A stretch of 64,000 nt of DNA from Methanosarcina horonobensis HB-1 = JCM 15518 (GTDB taxonomy: Archaea > Halobacteriota > Methanosarcinia > Methanosarcinales > Methanosarcinaceae). Positions 45,098 through 54,299 of the stretch are shown here, one piece after another. How positions within the stretch are numbered: the first letter of the stretch is position 1; each line of letters begins with the position of its first letter. The notes beneath the pieces are model-generated. The model was given only the letters and a program-made list of their open reading frames with translations. It had not been told where the DNA came from and made no database searches. The DNA lies in NCBI RefSeq assembly GCF_000970285.1, contig NZ_CP009516.1:4381036-4445035 (forward strand), in the 5' to 3' direction. The translations under genes were made by a program, and so were the position numbers.

Positions 45098-47713
45098 ATG
45101 AAAGTTAATAAATACTTAACATTTTTCCTAGCTCTATTTGTTTTGATGGTTACTGTTACGCCCACTGGAGCTGCCGAGAATACCTCAAACGTGAAAAAAG
45201 TAATACTTCAGATGACCACAACGTTAGAAAACAGTGATACTCAGCTACATTTTAATTATGCCGAAAACCTGGGAGACGGACGTGGTATTACATTTGGTTG
45301 TATAGGGTTCTGCACCGGGACTTATGATGGAAACATTCTAATAAAACATTACACAGAACTGAATCCTGATAATACCCTGGCAAAATACATACCTGCTCTG
45401 AATAAAATCGACGCTGGTTCTCACAATGCAGCAGGTGGAGACGGAAATCCAAACGTAGAAGGATTATCCGGATTTATAAAAGACGTTCAGTCGTGCAATG
45501 ATCCTCTTTTCAAGACAGCTCAGATTGATAAGCTTGACGAGCTGTACTATAATCCTGCAATGAAAATTGCAGATTCCATAGGCGCCAAAAATGCACTTAC
45601 TAAAGCTTTCATCTATGATATGTGCGTCAGGCATGGAGTTGACGGGGCAGAAAGAATCATAAAGAATGCAGGCACAACCCCAAAACAGGGAGCCGATGAA
45701 AACGCATATCTTCAGAAATTAATTTCGCTCAGGGATTCAAAATTAAAGCAGGAGGGACTTGGGGACGTAAACAGAGATCAGGGATATAAAAACGTCCTCA
45801 ACAGTGGAAATGTTAATCTTCAGACTCCCTTTAAGTTCGTTGCATATGGAGAATCTTTCACTATTGACGGTAGCTTGGATCTTGGTGAACAGCAGCAAGA
45901 AACTACAGATGAAGAAGAGGACAATTCCAGTGAGGATGTAATAATAGAAGCTGGCAACCGTTTGCGTGAGGCTTCTCCTGATATTGTCTACAAGAGTTCA
46001 TCCTTTATTGACGTGGGTGGAATGAACAGTGTCAGATATAGAGACATAATGTTATTTAACCTGAGTGAATACACCAATGCATCCCAGATTGGAAATGCAA
46101 CCCTTTCTCTCTACTGGTATTATCCTGAAGGAAGTACCAGACCTCAGGATACTATAGTTGAAGTTTACAGACCAGCTTCTTCCTGGAACGCAAATTACGT
46201 AAGCTGGAACAAAAGGGACAAAAACGTTGCGTGGAATAACGCAGGAGGAGACTGGTATGACAAAAACGGCATCTTGCAGGGCAGCACTCCATATGCTACA
46301 TTTACCATAAAAGGCAGTAGTATTCCTGACAACAGGTACTATCAGCTGAATGTAACAGACCTTGTAAAAGAATATGTTAGCGGCAAGTACGAAAACACGG
46401 GATTCCTGATAAAAGCGCGTAGTGAGAGTAATAACTATATTGCATTCTACAGCAGTGACTGGACAAATGAAAACCAAAAACCAAAGCTTAACGTGACAGA
46501 GGAAGCAGCTTCAGTAATTGTGCCTGAACCTGATGTAAATGCAACTGTTACCGATGTAAAGGATAACCGTCTCAGGGAAGCATCTCCCGAGATAGTTTAT
46601 CAGGACAGTTCCTTTATTGATGTTGGAGGAATAAGCGATGTCGGCAGATACAGAGACGTTATGTGGTTTAATCTGAGTGAGCATAATAGTTCTGAAGTCA
46701 GTAATGCAACCCTTTCCCTTTACTGGTATTACCCTGAAGGAAGCTCAAGGGCACAGGATACTATAATTGAAGTTTACAGGCCTGCTTCATCCTGGAATCC
46801 GGCCTATGTAAGCTGGAACAAAAAGGATAAAGGCATTGCATGGAATAACGCAGGAGGAGACTGGTACGATAAAAACGGAGTTGCACAGGGCAGTACTCCT
46901 TATGCCATACTCGTCATTAAAGGCAGTGAACTTCCTGACAACAGGTACCATCAGCTGGATGTAACCAATCTAGTAAAAGAATACGCCAGCGGGAAATACG
47001 AGAACACTGGATTCCTGATAAAAGCGCGTACAGAGAGTAGTAACTATATAGCTTTCTACAGCAGTGACTGGACAAATGAAAACCAGAAACCAAAGCTTAA
47101 CGTGACAAAGAAAGTATCTGTAACTCCAACTGTAAATGCAACTCTCACAGGTGCAACGGACAACCGTTTACGTGAGGCTTCTCCCGACATTGTCTACAAG
47201 AGTTCATCCTTTATTGACGCAGGTGGAATGAACAATGTCAGATACAGAGACATGATGTGGTTTAACCTGAGTGAGTACACCGGTTCTACCGAAGTTAGTA
47301 ATGCAATCCTTTCCCTTTACTGGTATTATCCTGCAGGAACCTCAAGACCGAATGACACCATAATAGAGATTTACAGGCCTGCTTCTTCCTGGAACGCAAA
47401 CTACGTAAGCTGGAATAAGCGGGACAAAAACGTTGCCTGGAAAAATTCCGGAGGAGACTGGTACGATAAAAATGGCGTTTCTCAGGGTAGCATTCCGTAT
47501 GCTACAATAACTATCAAGGGAAGTAGTCTTCCTGACAACAAGTACCACCAGCTGAATGTAACAGACCTTGTAAAAGAATATGTTAGTGGAAAGTATGAAA
47601 ACACAGGATTCCTAATAAAAGCACGCACAGAAAGCAATAACTATGTTGCATTCTACAGCAATGACTGCGGAAACGAAAGTCAGGTGCCAAAACTTCAACT
47701 GGTATACAGCTAA
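45098..47713 (+). CDS. Secreted GH46 chitosanase fused to three DNRLRE domains, copy 4
   Basis: 871 residues. A signal peptide (1-26) is followed by the GH46 domain (to about 265) with E44 and D60, then the acidic linker GEQQQETTDEEED. Three repeats of about 180 residues follow, each starting NRLREASP.IVY and containing SLYWYYPEGS, VYRPASSWN..YVSWNK, AWNNAGGDWYDKNG and TGFLIKARTESNNYIAFYSSDW. DNRLRE domains are known from Methanosarcina disaggregatase and related surface proteins and are thought to bind polysaccharide. The fusion suggests an enzyme held on an extracellular polysaccharide, possibly the cell's own methanochondroitin matrix. The substrate is inferred, not shown. Confidence 0.9.
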   Translation: MKVNKYLTFFLALFVLMVTVTPTGAAENTSNVKKVILQMTTTLENSDTQLHFNYAENLGDGRGITFGCIGFCTGTYDGNILIKHYTELNPDNTLAKYIPALNKIDAGSHNAAGGDGNPNVEGLSGFIKDVQSCNDPLFKTAQIDKLDELYYNPAMKIADSIGAKNALTKAFIYDMCVRHGVDGAERIIKNAGTTPKQGADENAYLQKLISLRDSKLKQEGLGDVNRDQGYKNVLNSGNVNLQTPFKFVAYGESFTIDGSLDLGEQQQETTDEEEDNSSEDVIIEAGNRLREASPDIVYKSSSFIDVGGMNSVRYRDIMLFNLSEYTNASQIGNATLSLYWYYPEGSTRPQDTIVEVYRPASSWNANYVSWNKRDKNVAWNNAGGDWYDKNGILQGSTPYATFTIKGSSIPDNRYYQLNVTDLVKEYVSGKYENTGFLIKARSESNNYIAFYSSDWTNENQKPKLNVTEEAASVIVPEPDVNATVTDVKDNRLREASPEIVYQDSSFIDVGGISDVGRYRDVMWFNLSEHNSSEVSNATLSLYWYYPEGSSRAQDTIIEVYRPASSWNPAYVSWNKKDKGIAWNNAGGDWYDKNGVAQGSTPYAILVIKGSELPDNRYHQLDVTNLVKEYASGKYENTGFLIKARTESSNYIAFYSSDWTNENQKPKLNVTKKVSVTPTVNATLTGATDNRLREASPDIVYKSSSFIDAGGMNNVRYRDMMWFNLSEYTGSTEVSNAILSLYWYYPAGTSRPNDTIIEIYRPASSWNANYVSWNKRDKNVAWKNSGGDWYDKNGVSQGSIPYATITIKGSSLPDNKYHQLNVTDLVKEYVSGKYENTGFLIKARTESNNYVAFYSNDCGNESQVPKLQLVYS

Positions 47714-48734: not shown

Positions 48735-49223
48735 TTAAGCGTAAACATCGCATGTTGTAATACCATGACCTTCTTGTGATGTACAGCCAAGAGGCAATAC
48801 TGAATAGTGTTCAGTTACTAAATTTGCGTAGTTCCGCAAAAATCGACTTTTACATACGCTGGAGATATGACAGACGAATATGCTAATCTGTAAATGCCAA
48901 ACCTTGAATTTATATCACGAGGCTGGACTATCGCTTTTGCTTCTTGTGGAGTCTTCCAACTTATTTTTTGTTTTTGAAGGTTTTTGACAATATCTTTTGG
49001 AAGCGTTTCTAGATATCCAGGGCCTACTTCCTCCATGAATTCAGCAATAGTCATATATTTCCCCAGAATGAAGCTATAAGTGTACTGTTATCTGTGGAGA
49101 AATAGAAAGACTTTGCTTTATTATTCTTTGTCGCTGTATTGACATTTCCACTTGCTGTTGCTAAGGAATTAGCAAAATTGCCAAAATGAATATTCCGATT
49201 ACAAGATTTTTACTTATTCTCAT
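48735..49223 (-). pseudogene. Decayed gene for a secreted protein (three frame breaks)
   Basis: ATG 49223 opens a signal peptide (MRISKNLVIGIFILAILL). The sequence then continues in a second frame (SGNVNTATKNNKAKSFYFS), a third (MTIAEFMEEVGPGYLETLPK ... AYSSVISPAYVKVDFCG) and a fourth segment (NLVTEHYSVLPLGCTSQEG), which ends at TAA 48735. Together they describe one secreted protein of about 160 residues with two late cysteines. I do not recognise the family. A TATA-like TATATATAAG lies just upstream, inside or next to the duplicated leader. Confidence 0.65.
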
Positions 49224-49260
49224 TTACCTAACTTATATATATTTTTACTAGGAAGGTAAT

Positions 49261-49885
49261 ATCAAGCAAGCTTAAATATATGCAAAGCTAATCCGATAAT
49301 GCTTCTTAGGCAGATATTATGGAGTTCAGGTGATTCTGGAAAAATCTTTTTTGAACTCTATAAATTCCTCTTACTTAACTCTTTATAAGTTTTGTGTCCA
49401 CAGTCTCGAACTATGCGATTTTCAGATTCAAAATGAACCTGAAATTATTCTTCGATCTTTGTCAGTTGGATGATTTGGCCAATAACTTTATGTGTGAACA
49501 TATTGCCTTAGCTCATATTCAAATATATAAAAAATAACTGATACAATTTTACAGTCAAATAATTCGATATTTAGAGAAATCTATATTAAATCTAGACATA
49601 TGCATTAATTAATCGTAATATACTGATGAATAAATTCACGTATAAGGCATTCTCCAATGAATTACAAGCTCCGAGTTGAGAGATCATCCCGTTCTAGGAC
49701 TATCAATAACACCATTTTTTATGAGTCTATTAATTATGAGTTTAGACTGAAAATAGTCGTAATACTTTCCATATAATCAGCAAAATGTCAAAACTCTGTC
49801 ACTAAAAAAGTTGAGATATCACAACTAAGAAGTTTTTCCTTTAAAACATTAGGAAAAAATAGTTGAGCTTTTGAAGTGAGGAGGA
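49261..49885 (-). repeat. Duplicated leader segment, copy 1
   Basis: This segment matches 53652-54299 over its length in the same orientation, with short insertions and substitutions. Each copy lies just upstream of a minus-strand gene for a secreted protein. The best-conserved block, about 49413-49495, includes a hairpin (49420-49444) identical in both copies. Read on the minus strand the hairpin has a G-U pair where the plus strand would have an A-C mismatch, so it fits a minus-strand leader RNA. Confidence 0.7.
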
Positions 49886-49921
49886 TTGATTGATTATACC
49901 TTGAAACACCGAAGATTCAAA

Positions 49922-50773
49922 TTATAAACGCTTGACTATCAGAGACGATAAAACTCCTAGAATGACTATTATTGAAGTAAATCCAGGCGTTTGGTGTGTT
50001 GATGTTTCACGATCTGTGCCCTCTTTATCTTCATCAGATGATTTTGCTTGTTCCCCTTTATCAAAAATTATCTCTTCGCCTTTATCAGGTGATTCTACCA
50101 TTTCCTCTTCACCTAAAATGATCTCTTCACTTTCATCAGGAGAATCTGACGGTTCAGCTTCATCTAAGGTTATTGTTGTAGACTTCATAAAAACGACTGG
50201 TACTTCACTTATTCCTTCTTGTTCACAGTGATCATTTATTATTAAATATATTTCATCAAAGAAAGAATCATTAACACTTTCCGGAGATTTTTCATCGATA
50301 AACACATTTAGATATCCCGCAAAGAAATAACCAAACCCAATCAATGGTACACCATTGGATTTCATGTAAGGCTGAAGTTCATCCCTGAAACTATGGATAC
50401 ATTTCTCTGCTTTTTTTTCCCATTCAGCTTTTTCAGCAGCATTGGTAATTACAGGCATTGTCCCCCGAGTAGTTATGAACCAGCGTTCATTTTTAATTTT
50501 CTCAAAAATCTCAGGGTCGTAATTAAATGCAGGGAGCTCGTCATCATATTCTGAATCATTTAATTGTTCGTCATCTGCATTTGCAGAAACAGTTAATGTA
50601 TAAAGAAATAACGTAAATATTAACAATAACATAGGTATCGAGACTCTGCCAGTTTTACTTTTCTTGAGCAGTTTACCAGCTCCGAAAATATATTTTATCC
50701 AAGAATAGTACGGTTTCCAAATTTGTTGAATTGCTGCCAATAGTTTCCTGACGATTATCCAACTTATATTCAC
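49922..50773 (-). CDS. Secreted PGF-CTERM surface protein with one protease-pro-region-like domain
   Basis: The frame is open from ATG 50773, but the signal peptide only starts around residue 35 (LKKSKTGRVSIPMLLLIF, cleavage near SANA). Translation probably starts later, possibly at CTG 50671, which lies 8 nt after GGAG. The mature part has one domain of about 100 residues (TTRGTMPVITNAAEKAEWEK, PYMKSNGVPLIGFGYFFAGY, FFDEIYLIIND, EVPVVF). An acidic Ser/Asp/Glu stalk follows, then TPGF, a hydrophobic helix and KR. That tail is the archaeosortase signal known as PGF-CTERM. The same domain occurs in the two genes downstream on this strand's upstream side. Confidence 0.75.
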   Translation of the reverse strand: MNISWIIVRKLLAAIQQIWKPYYSWIKYIFGAGKLLKKSKTGRVSIPMLLLIFTLFLYTLTVSANADDEQLNDSEYDDELPAFNYDPEIFEKIKNERWFITTRGTMPVITNAAEKAEWEKKAEKCIHSFRDELQPYMKSNGVPLIGFGYFFAGYLNVFIDEKSPESVNDSFFDEIYLIINDHCEQEGISEVPVVFMKSTTITLDEAEPSDSPDESEEIILGEEEMVESPDKGEEIIFDKGEQAKSSDEDKEGTDRETSTHQTPGFTSIIVILGVLSSLIVKRL

Positions 50774-50926
50774 AAGTCATTAATTCGATGAGAATATATA
50801 ATCTATCTAGGCATAACTAAAACCTTAAGGGATAAACCAATTCAGTGATTTTTTCTTCGATATCAATAGATCCAAACTTTTTGGTATACCGTCAATATCT
50901 GGCAGAATTTCTGATATGAAACAATG

Positions 50927-51052
50927 TTATGTGTGAACTATACTCACAGAGATACTGTGTGGTTCTGGAATGAGATAATACACGATAGCAATTATAGCAA
51001 TCAAGATTGCAACAAAAAGTATCAATATAGTACTCTTTTTGGAAAATTTCAT
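50927..51052 (-). CDS. Small membrane peptide (41 aa)
   Basis: ATG 51052 opens MKFSKKSTILILFVAILIAI with a 20-residue hydrophobic helix and a short tail ending SIVHT. The sequence looks like a signal anchor. No clear Shine-Dalgarno sequence is present. It lies between two PGF-CTERM genes in a 380-base space with no other content. Confidence 0.4.
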   Translation of the reverse strand: MKFSKKSTILILFVAILIAIIAIVYYLIPEPHSISVSIVHT

Positions 51053-51155
51053 ATTTTTTATTTTTAAGGATTTCTACAGAGCCGATTATCCTTTGTCTCA
51101 GAGATAATATCCTGAAAGCCTGTAAGCTCTAACTTATGTGAATTCAAATCCTGTA

Positions 51156-52301
51156 TTAGTTCTTCCTAAATTTCCACCCTCCATAAAGACAGGTCAAGCC
51201 ACCCAATAAACTGAAGCCTGGAGTAGAGCTAATTTCACTTGATTTACCCCCATTATCAGATTCAGAATTACTATTATTAGACTTATTAAGTTCTGCAGTG
51301 TTTTCGTCTTTAGATGCTGATAAATTTGTCTCTTCAGATGCCTCTATATCTTCAGTCTCGATTTCATTAACAAATACTCCCTCGTCAAAAATGACAGGAA
51401 CATCATTTACATTTTGTTTTCTTGCTTCTTCATTAATGATCTGGTAAATCTCTTTAACTATAGTATTCTTTTCTTCATCAGGCAAAGTTTCATTAATTCC
51501 GACTTCTAATCTAGTGAGCTCTATTCCGTATATTATTACCTGTCCTCTTTCCATATATGGATTGATTTCATCCTGGGTGCTACCAGCAATTGCAGACAGC
51601 TTATCCGCCCAGGCAATTATCTCATTCTGGTCTTTTAATAGAGGAATTTTCCCATAAGCTGCAATATTTTTATACAATGGTATCGTCGGCTTTTTCTTCA
51701 TAAATTCTTCAAGAGCATGCATCTCTGATTCAGAAAGATTATTTGTACTTCCTCCAAACTCGTGAATAATACCCTGTTCTATATCCAATATAATTTCTCG
51801 ATTTCCGTAAGTTCCATATCCAAACTCCACAGGAATATTTTGTATACCCATTTCTTTTGCAGAATTGTCTACTGAAGTGTATACTTCATTCATTAACGTC
51901 TCATCAACATTACCATACTTGAACAAAATCACAAAGTATCCCTTGGTATTAATTCCGCAGGAAATTACCTCTCCATGAGGATACATATATTTGGAAGCAA
52001 GAGTGTCTTTTAACTTATTACTGAGCTCTTCAAGGGTTGAATTCCAATTTTCTTTTTGTTCTTCAGTTTCCAGTATAGGAAGTTCTCCGTGTCTGGTAAT
52101 TACAGTATTCCCTTGTGAGCTCATACCAAAAAAGTAATTATAATAGTCATAATCCACATTACTCACTTCTGAATACAAGTAATCACCCGACCTAACTGAC
52201 TCATTATCATCATAATTAATTCCAAAGGCAGTGCCAATGGTGCAACAAAATATCAAAAGAAACTCTATTAAATATATAAAACCAGACTTTGAGATTGTCA
52301 T
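51156..52301 (-). CDS. Secreted PGF-CTERM surface protein with two protease-pro-region-like domains
   Basis: 381 residues with a signal peptide (1-26). Two copies of the domain shared with its neighbours follow: residues about 66-163 (ITRHGELPILETEEQKENWN, YMYPHGEVISCGINTKGYF, NIPVEF) and about 214-310 (AAYGKIPLLKDQNEIIAWAD, PYMERGQVIIYGIE, EIYQIINEEARKQNVNDVPV). A Ser/Asn/Glu stalk and STPGFSLLGGLTCLYGGWKF complete the protein, giving a PGF-CTERM anchor. ATG 52301 follows AAGGGA. The domain is not one I can name. Confidence 0.78.
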   Translation of the reverse strand: MTISKSGFIYLIEFLLIFCCTIGTAFGINYDDNESVRSGDYLYSEVSNVDYDYYNYFFGMSSQGNTVITRHGELPILETEEQKENWNSTLEELSNKLKDTLASKYMYPHGEVISCGINTKGYFVILFKYGNVDETLMNEVYTSVDNSAKEMGIQNIPVEFGYGTYGNREIILDIEQGIIHEFGGSTNNLSESEMHALEEFMKKKPTIPLYKNIAAYGKIPLLKDQNEIIAWADKLSAIAGSTQDEINPYMERGQVIIYGIELTRLEVGINETLPDEEKNTIVKEIYQIINEEARKQNVNDVPVIFDEGVFVNEIETEDIEASEETNLSASKDENTAELNKSNNSNSESDNGGKSSEISSTPGFSLLGGLTCLYGGWKFRKN

Positions 52302-52489
52302 ATATATCCCTTGAAAAATACTATATAGCTTGTGAAGTTGAATTAATGATCATAACAATAAAATTTAAACTATCTAAGTGATTAACTTAACCATAACATC
52401 CATTAAACTTGATTTTAAACCTCAAATGCCGTGAGCTCTAAAATTTTTACTAAATTATTAAAAAAGAAAAGGCTAATTTAAGTGCCTTT

Positions 52490-53616
52490 TCAAGCTGTGA
52501 GTGGGGTAACACCTAAATCGGATATTACTCCTGAATTTGGCGAGAACCACCTAGAACTGTAAAAAGTGCCCTTATGAACCCCTACCAGTCTATATTCATT
52601 GGTAGTAGGTATTACTCTGTAGACTGGAGCTCCACTATCTCCGGGCTGGGAAATATAATTGGCCTTTACCATATTAATATATGTCATTTGCCCATCGGTT
52701 AAGTTTTGAAAACCCACTACATTTCCACTTTTTACGCCTGAGGTAGTCCCAGACATATATACTCCCCAACCACTCCATGAATTAGATGGGGCTGAAGATA
52801 CATAACTGTTGACATTTTTAGTTACTCCGCTACCAACATGAATTTTTGCAGCCACATTGCTATAGGGGACGAAGCATGCATCTGCATAATGACCACTGAT
52901 TTTGCTAACACTCCCTGCCGCATCAGATGTTGGCTGATACATATCATAGCCTACGTAAGTTCCAAGGTGTTGTACAGTTACATATCCTTTAGTTCCAGAA
53001 CCAGTTTGAGCAGCATACCCTATTGTTCCACAGGCACCAGTTTCACCGGTAACCTTTATAGCGCCAATTATTGGACGATAATAGCTATCATAACCACTCA
53101 CTTCATCCTGGATAAAATCGCTTTTACCGAATACAACAGGAGCTTCCTTTATAGATACTTCACTTGCTCTTTTACTTATTACATTGTATATTTCATTAAT
53201 TTGGGAATCTGTAACATTCATACCTTCATAAAACACAACCTCAAAATAGCCGTTAATATCAAAACCATAACCAATTACTGGACCTTTTGGATATACATAT
53301 GGCTCCATACATCCCCTAGTTTAAGTCTAGCCTTATCAAGCTTACCAAGCCAGTTTCGTCTTTCTGCTTGAGTAGTATACTGTGGGATTTGTCCCTTTGT
53401 CGTCAAGACTTTGGAATCTTCTTTCAAAGAATCTAAAGTTTGGGGACCAAAATCAGGTATCTGCATGTCATTTAGTCCTGGTTCATTTATTCCCGAAACT
53501 TCACCTTCTGATGAGACGACCGTCAAATCGTCTGCAGACGCCGAAGCTACAAATACTACTTCGATAAGTAGCATTGCCAAAACAAATATACCTGTTCCAA
53601 TTTTATTACGATTCAT
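52490..53616 (-). pseudogene. Secreted chymotrypsin-like serine protease with pro-region; frameshifted
   Basis: ATG 53616 follows AGGAG and opens a signal peptide (IGTGIFVLAMLLIEV, ASASA) and the start of a pro-region (LTTKGQIPQYTTQAERRNWL). At about 53308 one base is missing, and the rest continues in another frame: MEPYVYPKGPVIGYGFDING, then the protease. The triad residues are His in GYVTVQHLG, Asp in HYADACFVPYS and Ser in QPGDSGAPVYR (H114, D143 and S225 counted from the ATG at 53308). Two cysteines could form a disulphide. The pro-region domain is the same as in the two PGF-CTERM proteins next door. The gene is recently broken, or is read by frameshifting. Confidence 0.75.
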
Positions 53617-53651
53617 ATTCTTTCTCCTGTTTAGCACCCAGGAGGCAGAAT

Positions 53652-54299
53652 CAGGTAAGCTAAGCCTTAAATATACGCAAAGCTAACTTTATTGTGCCTC
53701 TTAGGGCAGATATTATAGAGTTTGCGGGATCTTGGGAAATCTTCAAACTCTATAAACTACTTTTTATCAACTCCTTATAAGTTTTCTGTGTAATTCTCAA
53801 ATTATGCGATTTTCAGATTCAAAATGAACCTGAAATTATTCTTCGATCTTTGTTAGTTGGATGATTTGGCCAATAATTTTATGTATGAGCATATTGCTCT
53901 AACTCATATTCAAGTATATATATATAAAAAATAACTGGTAAGATTTTGCAGTCACATAAATCGATAATTTAGTTAGTCCATGTGAAGCCTAGACTGATAT
54001 GTTCTTTAATAGTAATATACTAGCAAATAAATACACATGTTGAAGTTATTCTTCGATGAATTATATGTTTCAAGTTAAGAAATCGTCTCACTCAGGTTCT
54101 CAATCTATAACGCCTTTTCTTATGAGCCCACAAATTATTTTATAAATTATAAGTTTAGCCTAAAAATAGACATTGGGTTTTCCATATGGTCAGCAAAATG
54201 TCAAAACTTTATCATTAGAAACAGCTGAGATATCATAACCTCAGAAGCTTTTCCTTTAAAACATTAGGAAAAAATAGTTGAGCTTCTGAAGTGAGGAGT
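53652..54299 (-). repeat. Duplicated leader segment, copy 2
   Basis: Partner of 49261-49885. It begins 36 bases upstream of the protease start and includes the identical hairpin at 53811-53835. The distal end shares CTTTAAAACATTAGGAAAAA and AAGTGAGGAG with copy 1. No open frame is present in either copy. Confidence 0.7.

What the first reader, a model, noticed from the sequence alone, without database searches (positions are those of the whole stretch)
48735..54299. Possible surface protease and pro-domain partner system
A roughly 100-residue domain (TT[RK]G.[LM]P ... W..KL ... PYM..G..I.G ... EIY..I ... [IV]PV.F) occurs four times in three adjacent minus-strand genes. It is the pro-region of a secreted chymotrypsin-like protease (triad H/D/S visible), it occurs once in one PGF-CTERM surface protein and twice in another. 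A protease pro-region that also exists as separate, cell-anchored proteins suggests inhibitors, folding helpers or targeting partners of the protease. I know of no described family with this layout in methanogens.
Basis: partly seen in the sequence, partly recalled or inferred. Interest (0 to 1): 0.8.

Follow-up and report, generated by a model that had tools for sequence, protein, structure and literature searches.

The report
Secreted archaeal protease with anchored pro-domain partners
Methanosarcina and related methane-cycling archaea carry a secreted digestive-type protease next to a gene for a cell-anchored protein built from copies of that protease's own pro-domain, which looks like a surface-bound brake or shield against the enzyme; no described archaeal family with this layout was found.

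Summary
Four copies of a ~100-residue domain lie in three adjacent genes. An HMM built without this genome finds all four; shuffled controls score nothing. One copy is the pro-region of a streptogrisin/alpha-lytic-type serine protease with an intact H/D/S triad. In this genome a frameshift splits that copy; relatives have intact genes. The other copies are in PGF-CTERM-anchored proteins.

The pairing is conserved. In Methanosarcina 14 of 17 catalytically intact proteases are followed by an anchored pro-domain protein; in a second genus, 13 of 13. Each protease clade has its own partner clade (Mantel r 0.81). One genome has two split loci: a protease without pro-domain beside a separate anchored pro-domain protein. 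Partner genes often outlive broken proteases and stay under purifying selection. Some composites join the pro-region of an unrelated C39-like protease to these domains, without a catalytic domain. These points favour surface-tethered cognate inhibitors; anchored folding helpers remain possible.

Limits: the domain also occurs without protease (including on HEAT-repeat proteins), the window's third gene is not part of the conserved pair, and no interaction was tested.

Side finding: a ~280-nt structured leader is shared by many secreted-protease and partner genes.

The parts
53640..53927 (-). Conserved ~280-nt leader upstream of the protease start, with a hairpin at 53714-53754
   Evidence: 26/31 Methanosarcina genomes carry copies
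53275..53637 (-). Protease gene, front ORF: signal peptide (Met at 53616) and first third of the pro-domain; frame breaks near 53310
53108..53412 (-). Pro-domain copy of the protease (split over two frames)
52490..53308 (-). Protease gene, back ORF: rest of pro-domain and the whole catalytic domain
52490..53071 (-). Catalytic domain, streptogrisin/alpha-lytic type, starting at IIGAIKV; H 52969-52967, D 52882-52880, S 52636-52634
51156..52301 (-). Cognate partner: signal peptide, two pro-domain copies, acidic linker, PGF-CTERM anchor; 188 bp after the protease
51807..52106 (-). Pro-domain copy, tandem 1
51369..51668 (-). Pro-domain copy, tandem 2
51159..51224 (-). PGF-CTERM tail of the tandem partner
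49922..50773 (-). Second anchored pro-domain protein (one copy); belongs with partners of another protease clade, so an orphan partner
50171..50479 (-). Pro-domain copy, single
49925..49990 (-). PGF-CTERM tail of the single-copy protein
49254..49531 (-). Paralogous leader (77% identical over 645 bp) upstream of a decayed secreted-protein gene
48735..49240 (-). Decayed secreted-protein gene, unrelated to the domain; relatives of 206 aa elsewhere

Best explanation
The locus is a secreted streptogrisin/alpha-lytic-type serine protease with a new kind of pro-domain, followed by a cognate, cell-anchored protein made of copies of the same pro-domain. The protease is most likely made as a zymogen whose pro-domain helps it fold and then covers the active site until it is cut away outside the cell. 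The anchored partner, exported and held at the surface by its PGF-CTERM tail, most likely rebinds mature protease near the producing cell and inhibits it, protecting S-layer and surface proteins, while diffused enzyme stays active. Partner copies without a local protease would guard against related proteases from neighbours or paralogs. Shown by sequence: protease family, pro-region position, anchoring signals, conserved adjacency, clade-specific pairing, natural split loci, purifying selection on orphan partners. Inferred: physical binding, inhibition, protection. In this genome the protease copy is frame-broken, so the window's partners currently look like survivors.
For: Protease: profile matches SFase-2 (E 3.6e-12), SGPB and alpha-lytic protease; fold match to the same group; triad invariant. 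Adjacency: 14/17 proteases in Methanosarcina and 13/13 in genus g6 have a same-strand downstream domain protein. Cognate pairing: Mantel r 0.81, higher than between the catalytic domain and its own pro-domain (0.68); separate partner clades for each protease clade, also inside single genomes, and for the window clade as far as Methanoperedens. Trans action: two loci in G364 have a protease without pro-domain directly after a separate anchored domain protein. Anchoring: PGF/PGL-type motif in 73/89 stand-alone proteins and 0/30 proteases. Inhibitor rather than helper: seven broken proteases beside intact partners versus one reverse case; 13 genomes with domain but no protease trace; orphan dN/dS 0.25-0.39; composite orphans join the pro-region of a C39-like protease (60-64% identity over ~243 aa) to two copies plus anchor. 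Precedent: stand-alone subtilase propeptides are potent inhibitors (PMC6993865).
Against: No binding or inhibition was tested. Proteases in other families (f26, f15) lack an adjacent partner, so a partner is not required. Two proteases of this genome have none within 5 kb. The 7:1 decay asymmetry is small and partly from draft assemblies. HEAT fusions suggest additional roles. The Mantel test does not remove shared ancestry. The partner structure model is weak (mean pLDDT 58.8).
Confidence: 0.5

Rival explanations
1. Anchored folding helper or display factor: the partner supplies pro-domain in trans so that the protease folds, or holds it on the cell surface, rather than inhibiting it.
For: The split loci in G364 need a separate pro-domain for folding if the family behaves like alpha-lytic protease. 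Partner follows the protease immediately and tracks its clade.
Against: Fused proteases already carry their own pro-domain. Partners persist intact and under selection where the protease is broken or absent. Composite proteins combine pro-regions of two unrelated proteases without any enzyme.
Confidence: 0.25
2. Generic surface module: the domain is an adhesion, S-layer or structural module that was recruited both to surface proteins and to the protease, with no partner function.
For: Most Methanosarcina genomes with the domain have no intact protease. It is fused to HEAT repeats, a beta-helix and other surface modules.
Against: Conserved immediate adjacency, clade-by-clade pairing and split loci. 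The domain lies precisely at the pro-region position. In more distant families the fused protease exists without adjacent partners, so the pro-region role does not depend on surface proteins.
Confidence: 0.15
3. Effector-immunity system: the protease is released against competing cells and the anchored partners, including orphans, are immunity proteins.
For: Orphan partners of clades whose protease is missing from the genome, as in effector-immunity arrays. Multiple divergent clades per genome.
Against: No delivery system, target or killing activity is known. Other secreted proteases sharing the same leader (C39-like, M10, M12 types) argue for a general extracellular proteolysis programme.
Confidence: 0.2
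4. Chance repeat or assembly artefact.
For: The window protease has a frame break.
Against: Leave-out HMM E-values down to 5.5e-33, conservation in 85 of 393 genomes of the phylum sample, intact homologs.
Confidence: 0.01

Closest known systems
Streptogrisin / alpha-lytic protease group (peptidase family S1: SFase-2, SGPB, alpha-lytic protease)
   Same: Chymotrypsin fold, H/D/S triad, mature N-terminus at I-x-G-G, N-terminal pro-region
   Different: Pro-domain not detectably related to the known alpha-lytic pro-region in Pfam or PDB searches; archaeal; paired with an anchored pro-domain protein
Stand-alone subtilisin propeptide inhibitors (MEROPS I9: Pleurotus peptidase A inhibitor 1, yeast peptidase B inhibitor, Arabidopsis SPI-1; Plasmodium SUB1-ProM next to subtilisin-like genes, PMC6993865)
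   Same: A protease pro-domain that exists as an independent gene, in one case adjacent to the protease genes; predicted beta-alpha-beta-beta-alpha-beta order resembles these propeptides (from own knowledge)
   Different: Protease family is S1, not S8; cell-anchored; often tandem; no sequence relation found; inhibition not shown
PGF-CTERM archaeosortase substrates
   Same: Signal peptide, PGF motif, hydrophobic stretch, basic end
   Different: Content is repeated protease pro-domain rather than the usual surface modules
Effector-immunity pairs with orphan immunity genes (for example T6SS arrays, PMC5361080)
   Same: Cognate pairs and orphan second genes
   Different: No known delivery, toxicity or competition evidence here

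Membership tests
Streptogrisin/alpha-lytic-type serine proteases | Catalytic H, D, S in the correct order and context | tested here: met
   Invariant in 14 relatives; present in window
Streptogrisin/alpha-lytic-type serine proteases | Sequence profile similarity and fold | tested here: met
   SFase-2 E 3.6e-12 by profile; Foldseek E 3.7e-13, TM about 0.74-0.84 to targets of this group
Streptogrisin/alpha-lytic-type serine proteases | Classical alpha-lytic pro-region (PF02983) | tested here: not met
   No Pfam match in the pro-domain; the domain profile matches no PDB pro-region
I9 stand-alone propeptide inhibitors | Homology to subtilisin propeptides | tested here: not met
   No Pfam match to an I9 model
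I9 stand-alone propeptide inhibitors | Ferredoxin-like beta-alpha-beta-beta-alpha-beta fold | tested here: inconclusive
   Secondary-structure order fits in both models, but no significant PDB structure match for the partner
I9 stand-alone propeptide inhibitors | Tight inhibition of the cognate protease | not testable with these tools
   Needs biochemistry
PGF-CTERM archaeosortase substrates | Signal peptide plus PGF-TM-basic C-terminus | tested here: met
   Motif in 73/89 stand-alone proteins, 0/30 proteases; window tails
PGF-CTERM archaeosortase substrates | Archaeosortase A in the genome | not tested
   Not searched
Effector-immunity systems | Adjacent cognate pair | tested here: met
Effector-immunity systems | Protease harms competitors and the partner protects | not testable with these tools
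   Needs competition assays

The most novel reading that the evidence does not exclude
Methanogens coat their cells with anchored anti-proteases assembled from pro-domains, single, tandem or joined across unrelated protease families, that disarm their own and their neighbours' secreted proteases. Proteases and shields are expressed together through one shared structured RNA leader, forming an extracellular proteolysis regulon with orphan immunity.
Probability: 0.3. Interest if true: 0.8.

Novelty: new variant of a known kind. Interest (0 to 1): 0.62.

Why it matters
Stand-alone pro-domain inhibitors are known for subtilases in eukaryotes, and protein protease inhibitors are described as sparse in prokaryotes (PMC6993865). 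A conserved S1 protease plus cell-anchored pro-domain pair in archaea would give a first handle on how S-layer cells survive their own exoenzymes. It supplies a new pro-domain family without a Pfam entry, natural fused, split and composite versions of one interaction, and relatives in which it can be tested. A 2008 survey of serine proteases listed no trypsin-family member in M. acetivorans or M. mazei (PMC2605481), so this protease group appears to have been overlooked in the genus.

Tried and rejected
Known-family filing: Pfam and NCBIfam gave nothing for domain or protease, and PDB sequence searches with one protein or the domain profile gave nothing; only the protease profile matched.

Relation to the alpha-lytic pro-region: not detected.

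Fold search with the partner model: no significant match.

Programmed frameshift: rejected as the likely reading because homologs are open through the site; a sequencing error cannot be excluded.

Three-gene unit: rejected, since relatives keep two genes and the third groups with another clade.

Viral origin: no viral contig relative for the tandem partner.

Bacterial occurrence: one 3.2-kb 'Bacillota' MAG contig (L187) carries the same pair as two archaeal genomes of family f7 and is probably mis-binned.

The search for related loci with the 14-protein alignment failed for lack of conserved stretches; a 5-protein alignment found only 8 loci.

Full report
CHECK. The three minus-strand genes and the four domain copies are real. 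The protease is read in two overlapping ORFs (53637-53275 and 53308-52490) because of a frame break inside the pro-domain. A model trained only on other genomes finds every copy, and 200 shuffles score no better than E 4. The first alignment shows 13 invariant columns among the four window copies.

WHAT THE PROTEASE IS. Pfam and NCBIfam do not name it. A profile of 14 relatives matches SFase-2 (3.6e-12), streptogrisin B and alpha-lytic protease, and aligns the first residues of the mature enzymes to the point just after the domain. The AlphaFold2 model of the intact relative L182 (mean pLDDT 75.7) matches the same group by Foldseek. H, D and S are invariant. So the domain occupies the pro-region of a streptogrisin-type zymogen. 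Its predicted order is beta-alpha-beta-beta-alpha-beta, and the same order appears twice in the tandem partner model, which is weaker (mean pLDDT 58.8) and has no significant PDB match. The domain profile matches no PDB sequence.

DISTRIBUTION. The genome has 11 hits in 7 places. The domain is found in 27 of 31 Methanosarcina genomes and in 85 of 393 genomes of the phylum sample, 19 of 136 genera. Named relatives include Methanosarcina spp., Candidatus Methanoperedens and a Methanosarcinaceae MAG. No viral relative of the tandem partner was found.

PAIRING. A profile of the catalytic domain alone gave an unbiased protease census. In Methanosarcina, 17 proteases have a catalytic domain open over most or all of its length (one, G000 at 2684758, has an altered C-terminus). 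Fourteen, the window included, are followed on the same strand within 700 bp by a domain protein. The exceptions are two loci of this genome (L072, L073) and L104, where a partner lies nearby on the other strand. In genus g6, 13 of 13 fused proteases have a downstream partner. In family f26 none of three do, and none of three inspected in f15, so the pairing is a lineage trait. Outside these two genera the other pairs listed were picked because hits were adjacent and are not a fair sample.

CO-EVOLUTION. In the domain tree each protease clade has its own partner clade. The window's clade pairs with the tandem type in Methanosarcina, two other Methanosarcinaceae and Methanoperedens. Over 30 pairs, tree distances of catalytic domain and partner correlate at r 0.81 (p 1e-4), against 0.68 for the catalytic domain and its own pro-domain. 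Shared ancestry inflates such tests, but several genomes hold pairs of different clades.

SPLIT LOCI. Genome G364 has two loci in which the protease has no pro-domain. In L223 a protease with its own signal peptide starts 14 bp after a separate anchored domain protein; L218 has the same order but no clear start codon for its signal peptide. This is the strongest comparative sign that the domain acts on the protease in trans.

ORPHANS. Seven broken proteases stand beside intact partners (window, G010, two in G028, G005, G270, G345), one intact protease beside a broken partner (G002), and one locus has both decayed (G001). Thirteen Methanosarcina genomes have domain proteins but no protease trace. 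Orphan partners are under purifying selection (dN/dS 0.25-0.39). Five composite proteins of 558-590 aa start with the whole pro-region of a C39-like secreted protease (60-64% identity over about 243 residues, catalytic domain replaced), followed by two copies of this domain and an anchor. Others join HEAT repeats or further surface modules. The window's single-copy gene groups with partners of another protease clade.

MECHANISM. Shown: export and anchoring signals, pro-region position, pairing, split loci, persistence. Established knowledge: pro-regions of alpha-lytic-type proteases catalyse folding and inhibit the mature enzyme (own knowledge), and stand-alone propeptides of subtilases inhibit at nanomolar levels (PMC6993865). 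Inferred: the anchored copies rebind mature protease at the surface and inhibit it. A folding or display role fits the split loci equally well but explains the orphans and composites less well.

REGULATION. The leader upstream of the window protease is one of a family (5-18 copies in many Methanosarcina genomes). Copies sit close upstream of S1, C39-like, M10 and M12 protease genes, of partners and of other secreted proteins. Its core has a hairpin with a few compensatory changes. Rfam gives only sub-threshold matches to M. mazei sRNA162, antisense in the window but on the leader strand in L083, so this link is tentative; sRNA162 is known to be antisense to the 5' UTR of MM2442 (PMC3510493).

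VERDICT. Real, conserved, undescribed as far as the held literature and libraries show, and testable. It is a new variant of a known idea: a protease pro-domain used as a separate protein.

Noticed in passing
53640-53927 (minus) and 49254-49531 (minus): A ~280-nt leader with a conserved hairpin is shared by many secreted-protease, partner and other surface-protein genes in 26/31 Methanosarcina genomes; a candidate RNA-leader regulon.
   Followed up: partly
49301-49488 and 53706-53815 (plus strand); L083:7352-7430: Sub-threshold Rfam matches to sRNA162, antisense to the leader in the window but on the leader strand in L083.
   Followed up: partly
L090, L094, L098, L112, L129: Composite anchored proteins: pro-region of a C39-like protease plus two S1 pro-domains plus PGF-CTERM, no catalytic domain.
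   Followed up: partly
L072, L073, L076, L080, L104, L128: DUF3160 lipoproteins (PF11369) lie next to proteases or partners, mainly of one clade.
   Followed up: partly
L074, L025, L132, L149, L150: Surface proteins with HEAT repeats followed by one copy of the pro-domain; function unexplained.
   Followed up: no
48735-49240 (minus): Decayed gene for a small secreted protein; a 206-aa relative lies elsewhere in the genome.
   Followed up: partly
45098-47713 (plus): GH46 chitosanase-type domain with three disaggregatase-related repeats in a secreted protein.
   Followed up: no
L271:11595-11694: PYLIS_5 pyrrolysine insertion element of a transposase gene.
   Followed up: no
L187: A 'Bacillota' MAG contig that carries the archaeal protease-partner pair, probably mis-binned.
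   Followed up: no
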